From positions 556,368 through 620,367 of the forward strand of contig JAURFE010000001.1 in assembly GCA_030827135.1 (NCBI GenBank): DNA of 64,000 nt. Direction: 5' to 3'. This stretch comes from Vicinamibacterales bacterium. GTDB lineage: Bacteria; Acidobacteriota; Vicinamibacteria; Vicinamibacterales; SCN-69-37. Made by a program: the position numbers and the translations under genes. Shown here piece by piece: positions 46,707 to 47,229 of this stretch (the first letter of the stretch is position 1; every line of letters starts with the position of its first letter). The notes below the pieces were generated by a model that worked only from the letters and a program-made list of their open reading frames with translations, did no database searches and was not told the origin of the DNA.

Positions 46707-47093
46707 ATGCAGACACACGTGAAGGTGCTGGGGTGGCTCTTCATTGTCTTCAGCTTCTTCTACGTGCTGCTGGCCTTCGGGTCCTCGATGATCCTCGGTA
46801 TGCTTGCCGCGTTTGTCGGGTCCCAGGGGGGCGAAGACGCAGCGATCGGGGCGTCAGTGCTCGGCTTCACCGGTGCCGCCGCATTCATCTTCTGGTTGTG
46901 CCTCGGGATTCCAGGCCTGCTGGCCGGCTACGGTCTGCTCACGCTCCAGCCGTGGGCGCGCATCCTCGCGATCATCCTCTCGGCGATCCGCCTCATCAAC
47001 TTCCCGTTCGGCACCGCCCTCGGGGTCTACGGCCTCTGGGTGCTCTTCAACAAAGAGACTGAGGCGATGTTTAATGGGGCAATGGGGCAATGA
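46707..47093 (+). CDS. Small integral membrane protein, unknown function
   Basis: A 128-residue protein with three or four hydrophobic helices (VLGWLFIVFSFFYVLLAFGS, ILGMLAAFVG, AAFIFWLCLGIPGLLAGYGL, ARILAIILSAIRLINFPFG), then LGVYGLWVLFN and a short tail. The pattern resembles small DUF membrane proteins seen in many phyla. It lies 3 bases after the RRM gene, so the two are probably co-transcribed. The last residues, NGAMGQ, are encoded by a GGGGCAATG repeat that runs past the stop. The same AMGQ ends the unrelated convergent S9 peptidase. Confidence 0.8.
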   Translation: MQTHVKVLGWLFIVFSFFYVLLAFGSSMILGMLAAFVGSQGGEDAAIGASVLGFTGAAAFIFWLCLGIPGLLAGYGLLTLQPWARILAIILSAIRLINFPFGTALGVYGLWVLFNKETEAMFNGAMGQ

Positions 47094-47229
47094 GGCAATG
47101 GGCCAATGGAATGAGCCAATGCTTCAATGCTTCAATGCAATTCCAGGAATTCTGCTAATTAGATTGTGGAATTGAGGCATTGCCTCATTCCATTGCCTCA
47201 TTGCCCCATTGCCTCATTGCCCCATTCGT
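47073..47229. repeat. Repeat family D: GGGGCAATGAGGCAATGG arrays in inverted orientation around an AT-rich centre
   Basis: The left array (47073-47137) runs GGGGCAATGGGGCAATGAGG and on. The right array (47173-47229) is its inverse. Between them lies an AT-rich stretch containing AATTCCAGGAATTC. The arrays overlap the coding ends of both convergent genes and supply both TGA stops. Units of 8-9 bases repeat imperfectly. It could fold into a large hairpin. Confidence 0.85.

What the first reader, a model, noticed from the sequence alone, without database searches (positions are those of the whole stretch)
47073..47229. Two unrelated convergent proteins end in the same residues AMGQ from one repeat array
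The membrane protein ending at 47093 and the S9 peptidase ending at 47198 both finish Ala-Met-Gly-Gln-stop, encoded by GCAATGGGGCAATGA on opposite strands of an inverted array. The repeat has replaced or extended both C-termini and provides both stop codons. Such a shared tail could be neutral overprinting or act as a common C-terminal signal.
Basis: seen in the sequence. Interest (0 to 1): 0.6.

Follow-up and report, generated by a model that had tools for sequence, protein, structure and literature searches.

The report
Palindromic repeat creating matching protein tails
Two unrelated, convergent genes end in the same four amino acids because both run from opposite sides into one copy of a palindromic repeat that can hardly be read any other way; the shared tail is a by-product, but the repeat family, which sits against gene stop codons throughout this genome, is worth a second look.

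Summary
The membrane-protein ORF (46707-47093, +) ends ...FNGAMGQ* and the S9 peptidase (47198-49615, -) ends ...NEAMGQ*. Both tails and both stops lie in a 154-bp inverted array (47073-47226) of AATGRGGC octamers. No orthologue examined ends in AMGQ. One close relative has the two genes abutting with no array.

The shared tail needs no signal function. The unit is 8 bp, so all three frames entering from outside read one cyclic peptide, N-E/G-A-M-G/R-Q-(W or stop)-G. The only stop possible is TGA in AATGA, and the array is palindromic, so both genes read the same words. All 34 'AMGQ+stop' words in the genome lie in copies of this repeat.

The element is one of 33 arrays mapped in this genome. 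In the order-wide scan its units occur only in this bacterial family (Acidobacteriota). Arrays are enriched between convergent genes. Of 42 gene 3' ends facing an array, 39 have their stop within -20 to +26 nt of its edge, and 20 have it inside. At orthologous junctions relatives carry nothing, a shorter array, or an unrelated sequence, often another palindrome. I read it as a REP/MITE-like dispersed repeat that overprints gene ends; how it spreads and any 3'-end role are unknown.

The parts
47073..47226 (.). Inverted array of AATGRGGC octamers, one copy of the dispersed palindromic element
47073..47142 (+). Left arm of the inverted repeat
   Evidence: pair I1
47157..47226 (-). Right arm of the inverted repeat
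   Evidence: pair I1
46707..47093 (+). Membrane-protein ORF, 128 aa; its last six residues (NGAMGQ) and its stop are array sequence
   Evidence: no Pfam family
47198..49615 (-). S9 peptidase ORF, 805 aa; its last residues (NEWGNEAMGQ region) and its stop are array sequence
47079..47093 (+). GCAATGGGGCAATGA, coding AMGQ-stop of the membrane protein
   Evidence: G000:C11:603446-603460
47198..47212 (-). GCAATGGGGCAATGA, coding AMGQ-stop of the S9 peptidase
   Evidence: G000:C11:603565-603579

Best explanation
The window holds one copy of a dispersed, palindromic, lineage-restricted repeat that came to occupy the few bases between two convergent genes and overwrote both stop codons. Because the unit is 8 bp (8 mod 3 = 2), every frame entering from outside reads the same eight-codon cycle, N-E/G-A-M-G/R-Q-(W or TGA)-G, and only AATGA gives a stop. 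Because the array is an inverted repeat, both genes read the same words. A protein that crosses two or more intact units therefore ends AM(G/R)Q or M(G/R)Q. The shared AMGQ tail is neutral overprinting, not a sorting or degradation tag. Shown: the array, its family, an array-free junction in G002, the orthologue tails, the frame logic and the link to gene 3' ends. Inferred: that the element arrived as a unit by REP/MITE-like spread, that the array-free state is the older one, and that the tails are tolerated because only the last few residues change. An effect on mRNA 3' ends or translation termination is possible but untested.
For: Array and tails. Array-free junction in G002 with 4 nt between aligned flanks. 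No AMGQ in orthologues. All 34 AMGQ-plus-stop words of the genome lie in repeat copies. Stops inside arrays fall only at offsets 2, 10, 18 and 26, as the frame logic demands; 39 of 42 facing gene ends have their stop within -20 to +26 nt of an array edge. Convergent gaps 14 of 33 against 28 of 182, p = 0.0012. Further sites without an array in G004.
Against: G002 is not the ancestor, so loss of the array there is not excluded. No target-site duplication or linked mobiliser was found. Several orthologous sites in G004 carry shorter arrays of the same family, so local growth and shrinkage also act. In genes ending inside arrays the first in-frame unit is a stop in 18 of 20 cases against 18 of 42 out-of-frame units, a hint that the stops are not wholly neutral.
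Confidence: 0.85

Rival explanations
1. The arrays are functional 3'-end elements: hairpins at stop codons that stop transcription in both directions, protect mRNA 3' ends, or stall ribosomes at termination. Selection keeps some palindrome at the junction while its sequence turns over. The tails are still a by-product.
For: Arrays abut stop codons (39 of 42) and are enriched between convergent genes. Other palindromes occupy some of the same junctions in G004 or G002. Full copies fold strongly on both strands. E. coli REPs within 15 nt of stops are reported to stall ribosomes (PMC12306157).
Against: No T tract after the hairpin. Relatives lack any array at this and some other junctions. Most other convergent gaps in the same loci have no strong inverted repeat. 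A/G states of paired units agree only at chance. About five arrays lie between divergent genes.
Confidence: 0.3
2. The octamers are binding sites for an unknown DNA-binding protein, placed as inverted arrays, as was proposed for paired octamer and heptamer arrays in Geobacter metallireducens.
For: The unit is strongly conserved except for one A/G position, and that position is not tied to base pairing. Paired, opposite-strand arrays of tandem octamers are described in PMC2700814.
Against: Location at gene ends rather than promoters. No candidate protein was looked for or found. Sites come and go between close relatives.
Confidence: 0.15
3. AMGQ is a selected common C-terminal signal that both proteins acquired through the repeat.
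For: Four genes end in AMGQ from array copies: the two here, C51:121442 and C11:472680.
Against: Most genes ending inside arrays have other endings set by frame. Orthologues lack the tail. The tail is forced by the DNA.
Confidence: 0.03

Closest known systems
REP/BIME elements (repetitive extragenic palindromes)
   Same: Dispersed, multi-copy, palindromic, mostly extragenic, frequent between convergent genes (PMC1525189) and close to stop codons (PMC12306157)
   Different: 154-bp inverted array of octamers rather than one 20-40-bp palindrome; no Y1_Tnp gene next to a copy was found
Paired tandem octamer and heptamer arrays of Geobacter metallireducens (PMC2700814)
   Same: Tandem 7-8-bp units in pairs on opposite strands, in dozens of copies, species-restricted
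   Different: Different unit (GTTGCTYN in class 1); variable distance between the pair; proposed there as IHF/HU-type binding sites; link to stop codons not described in the passages read
MITEs, including Rickettsia palindromic elements (PMC10969869)
   Same: Short, non-coding, inverted-repeat elements of about 150 bp; some fuse into host reading frames
   Different: Here the host frame is ended, not kept; no duplication or parent transposon seen
Cyanobacterial short tandemly repeated repetitive (STRR) sequences
   Same: Dispersed arrays of short tandem units (7 bp, from memory)
   Different: As remembered, head-to-tail rather than inverted; not tested here
Intrinsic transcription terminators
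   Same: Strong hairpin at gene 3' ends
   Different: No T tract and a far longer stem

Membership tests
REP/BIME | Dispersed multi-copy extragenic palindrome | tested here: met
   92 BLAST matches, 33 arrays mapped, in gaps between genes
REP/BIME | Association with a RAYT (Y1_Tnp) gene | tested here: not met
   Two Y1_Tnp genes in G000; no AATGRGGC unit in the loci around them (about 1.5 kb each side)
REP/BIME | 20-40-bp palindrome with a GTAG or CGTC tag | tested here: not met
   Element is a 131-184-bp octamer array; no such tag at its ends in the copies printed; definition from the abstract of PMC3733652
MITE | Short non-coding element with terminal inverted repeats | tested here: met
MITE | Target-site duplication | tested here: inconclusive
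   None seen in printed flanks, but array-free sites are too diverged to fix the edges
MITE | Ends shared with an autonomous transposon | not tested
   Only Y1_Tnp was searched
Intrinsic terminator | GC-rich stem followed by a T tract | tested here: not met
   0 found in 46900-47400
Geobacter paired octamer arrays | Tandem octamers in opposite-strand pairs | tested here: met
   against the description; no sequence comparison made, and the units differ
Rickettsia palindromic element | Insertion inside an ORF with the host frame kept | tested here: not met
   Arrays lie at gene ends and stop the frame
Known Rfam RNA family | Match at or above gathering score | tested here: not met
   only sub-threshold hits to long microRNA hairpin models, which fit chance

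The most novel reading that the evidence does not exclude
Several palindromic repeat families in this bacterial family target or grow at gene stop codons, and one family can replace another at the same gene junction between close relatives. The stop codon would be part of the element's site, with first in-frame stops kept by selection, making it a self-renewing gene-end cassette with an unknown mobiliser.
Probability: 0.2. Interest if true: 0.65.

Novelty: new variant of a known kind. Interest (0 to 1): 0.38.

Why it matters
It explains a puzzling shared protein tail without invoking a signal, and warns that C-terminal similarity between unrelated bacterial proteins can come from palindromic repeats. 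The repeat family also offers a natural experiment: at the same gene junctions, close relatives carry nothing, short arrays, long arrays or unrelated palindromes, so effects on termination and mRNA ends could be compared directly.

Tried and rejected
RAYT/Y1_Tnp association: genes present but no array next to them. Pair-level covariation: A/G states of paired outer units agree at chance (34 of 70, expected 35), and inner arms resemble their own partner only slightly more than other elements' arms (mean rank 7.3 against 10 expected). Intrinsic terminator: no T tract. Rfam: nothing above gathering. Viral carriage: no exact match to three units in IMG/VR contigs. Target-site duplication: none visible in printed flanks. 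Literature on such arrays in Acidobacteria: nothing specific found. A reverse search with arrays of G004 and G002 found one G000 site with a reduced array and two with none, and was not taken further. No structure prediction was run, as it would not bear on the question.

Full report
WHAT IS THERE. The array at 47073-47226 is an inverted repeat (arms 47073-47142 and 47157-47226, 84% complementary, 14 nt between) with a predicted RNA fold of -99.6 kcal/mol, z = -9.4. On its left the 128-aa membrane-protein ORF (46707-47093, +) ends NGAMGQ*; on its right the 805-aa S9 peptidase (47198-49615, -) ends NEWGNEAMGQ*.

WHY THE TAILS ARE THE SAME. The outer unit is AATGRGGC, 8 bp, so successive units shift the reading frame and all three frames entering from outside follow one cycle of eight codons: AAT GRG GCA ATG RGG CAA TGR GGC = N, E or G, A, M, R or G, Q, W or stop, G. 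The only stop available is TGA, when R = A. A gene that crosses two or more intact units therefore ends AM(G/R)Q or M(G/R)Q. The array is palindromic, so two convergent genes read the same words. This part is arithmetic on the sequence, not inference.

TEST ON THE WHOLE GENOME. The genome (G000, 3.24 Mb, 80 contigs) gave 92 BLAST matches to the array; I mapped 33 arrays with at least three units. All 34 places where DNA spells AMGQ followed by a stop (pattern GCNATGGGNCARTRR, TGG excluded) lie inside places matched by the repeat. Of 42 gene 3' ends facing arrays, 39 have their stop between -20 and +26 nt of the array edge. Twenty stops lie inside, at offsets 2, 10, 18 and 26 only. Besides the two here, two other genes end AMGQ (C51:121442 and C11:472680); the rest end MRQ, MGQ, AMRQ, one mutated form, or in Q, E or K when the first unit already gives the stop.

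COMPARISON WITH RELATIVES. The peptidase has orthologues at 93% (G004), 79% (G002) and 76% (G003) identity. They end WVASEHWDH*, WVASEEWGR* and WVATEFFEHE*. Membrane-protein orthologues end LFSDPTPPTPPTRA* (G002) and LFPNS* (G003). In G002 the two genes are convergent with 4 nt between the aligned flanks, and the membrane-protein frame runs into the peptidase 3' end: GTTCAGCGACCCCACTCC against G000 GTTT[array]CGTTAAGACCCCACTC. Relative to G002, the array cut short one protein and lengthened the other. In G004 no membrane-protein gene lies at this junction: a different inverted repeat follows the peptidase stop and the RRM-protein gene comes next.

THE ELEMENT FAMILY. Most full copies are 117-184 bp with a common layout per arm: usually three to five AATGRGGC units, AATGG, about three looser AATnnnnn units, a second 5-bp step, then the centre. 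The A/G position is about 50:50 and does not agree between paired units (34 of 70, expected 35), so the constraint seems to be on the unit, not on exact pairing. Three tandem units occur in 7 of 162 genomes of the order, all in this family: six in the same genus (G000 included) and one in another genus. The one named match is an Acidobacteria MAG (JAKALV010000101.1). No viral contig matched.

PLACEMENT. Array gaps are convergent in 14 of 33 cases against 28 of 182 other gaps (Fisher p = 0.0012; simple gene caller of my own). At orthologous junctions relatives show three states. Nothing or a few bases: this site in G002; C11:1046715 and C79:15432 in G004. A shorter array of the same family in G004: C22:246356, C5:10282, C51:121442, C11:1157027; at C11:472680 G004 also has an array. 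An unrelated sequence, often palindromic: C11:672597, C11:674086, C5:13790, C22:56752, C11:500058 and C61:120107 in G004, and C61:41993 and C11:1046715 in G002. Two of the other palindromes are themselves dispersed: GGTTCAT heptamers (42 words in G000, 45 in G004, none in 12 other genomes) and CACAACGAGACGTGGAGG (22 in G004, 1 in G000).

A HINT OF SELECTION. In genes that stop inside arrays, the first in-frame unit carries A (a stop) in 18 of 20 cases, against 18 of 42 out-of-frame units (Fisher p = 7e-4), and in 8 of 8 cases where that unit is not the outermost. This was not a planned test, numbers are small, and some offset-2 cases may be native TGA codons (for example C11:1157027, where G004 ends in the same residues).

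HOW IT MOST LIKELY WORKS. A REP/MITE-like palindromic repeat, spread by an unknown route, is tolerated at tiny gaps between gene ends; its units overprint the stops and so set the tails. A role in 3'-end formation or termination is possible (REPs within 15 nt of stops stall ribosomes in E. coli, as summarised in PMC12306157), but no T tract is present, and its absence in relatives shows that it is not required at this junction. It fails defining features of REP (no tag, no linked RAYT found), of intrinsic terminators and of Rickettsia palindromic elements; MITE membership is open.

CAVEATS. The genomes are draft assemblies; gene calls away from the window are mine; G002 is not the ancestor; diverged copies were not all mapped.

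Noticed in passing
window 18563-18712: A second palindromic array family, GGTTCAT heptamers in inverted arms of 46 nt; dispersed in G000 (42 words) and G004 (45) and absent from 12 other genomes searched.
   Followed up: partly
L028 around 1872 and L045 around 672: A third family of inverted heptamer arrays, ATTGAGG/ATTGGGG, in gaps between genes; its unit resembles AATGRGGC and varies at the same A/G position.
   Followed up: no
window 38560-38648; L039 around 1487; L057 around 1104: A hairpin containing GACGTCGGGAGGCTTT that recurs in gaps at three places, possibly a dispersed terminator-like element.
   Followed up: no
window 12122-12161, 41863-41894, 53577-53627, 62258-62297: Short tandem arrays with 7-8-bp or related units (AGRGGTCC, GGTCCAG, GAACCC-type, CCTGGACT) without an inverted partner detected nearby.
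   Followed up: no
window 47198-52326: Two S9-family peptidase genes lie in tandem and overlap by 4 nt.
   Followed up: no
L031 near 1983 and L041 near 3113: Two arrays lie a short way upstream of what look like tRNA genes; not checked with a tRNA finder.
   Followed up: no
L173 (G002:C36:5220-5950): At an orthologous array site G002 carries a long near-perfect inverted repeat containing AAATGGGGACAGGTCTCG, which looks like another dispersed element.
   Followed up: no
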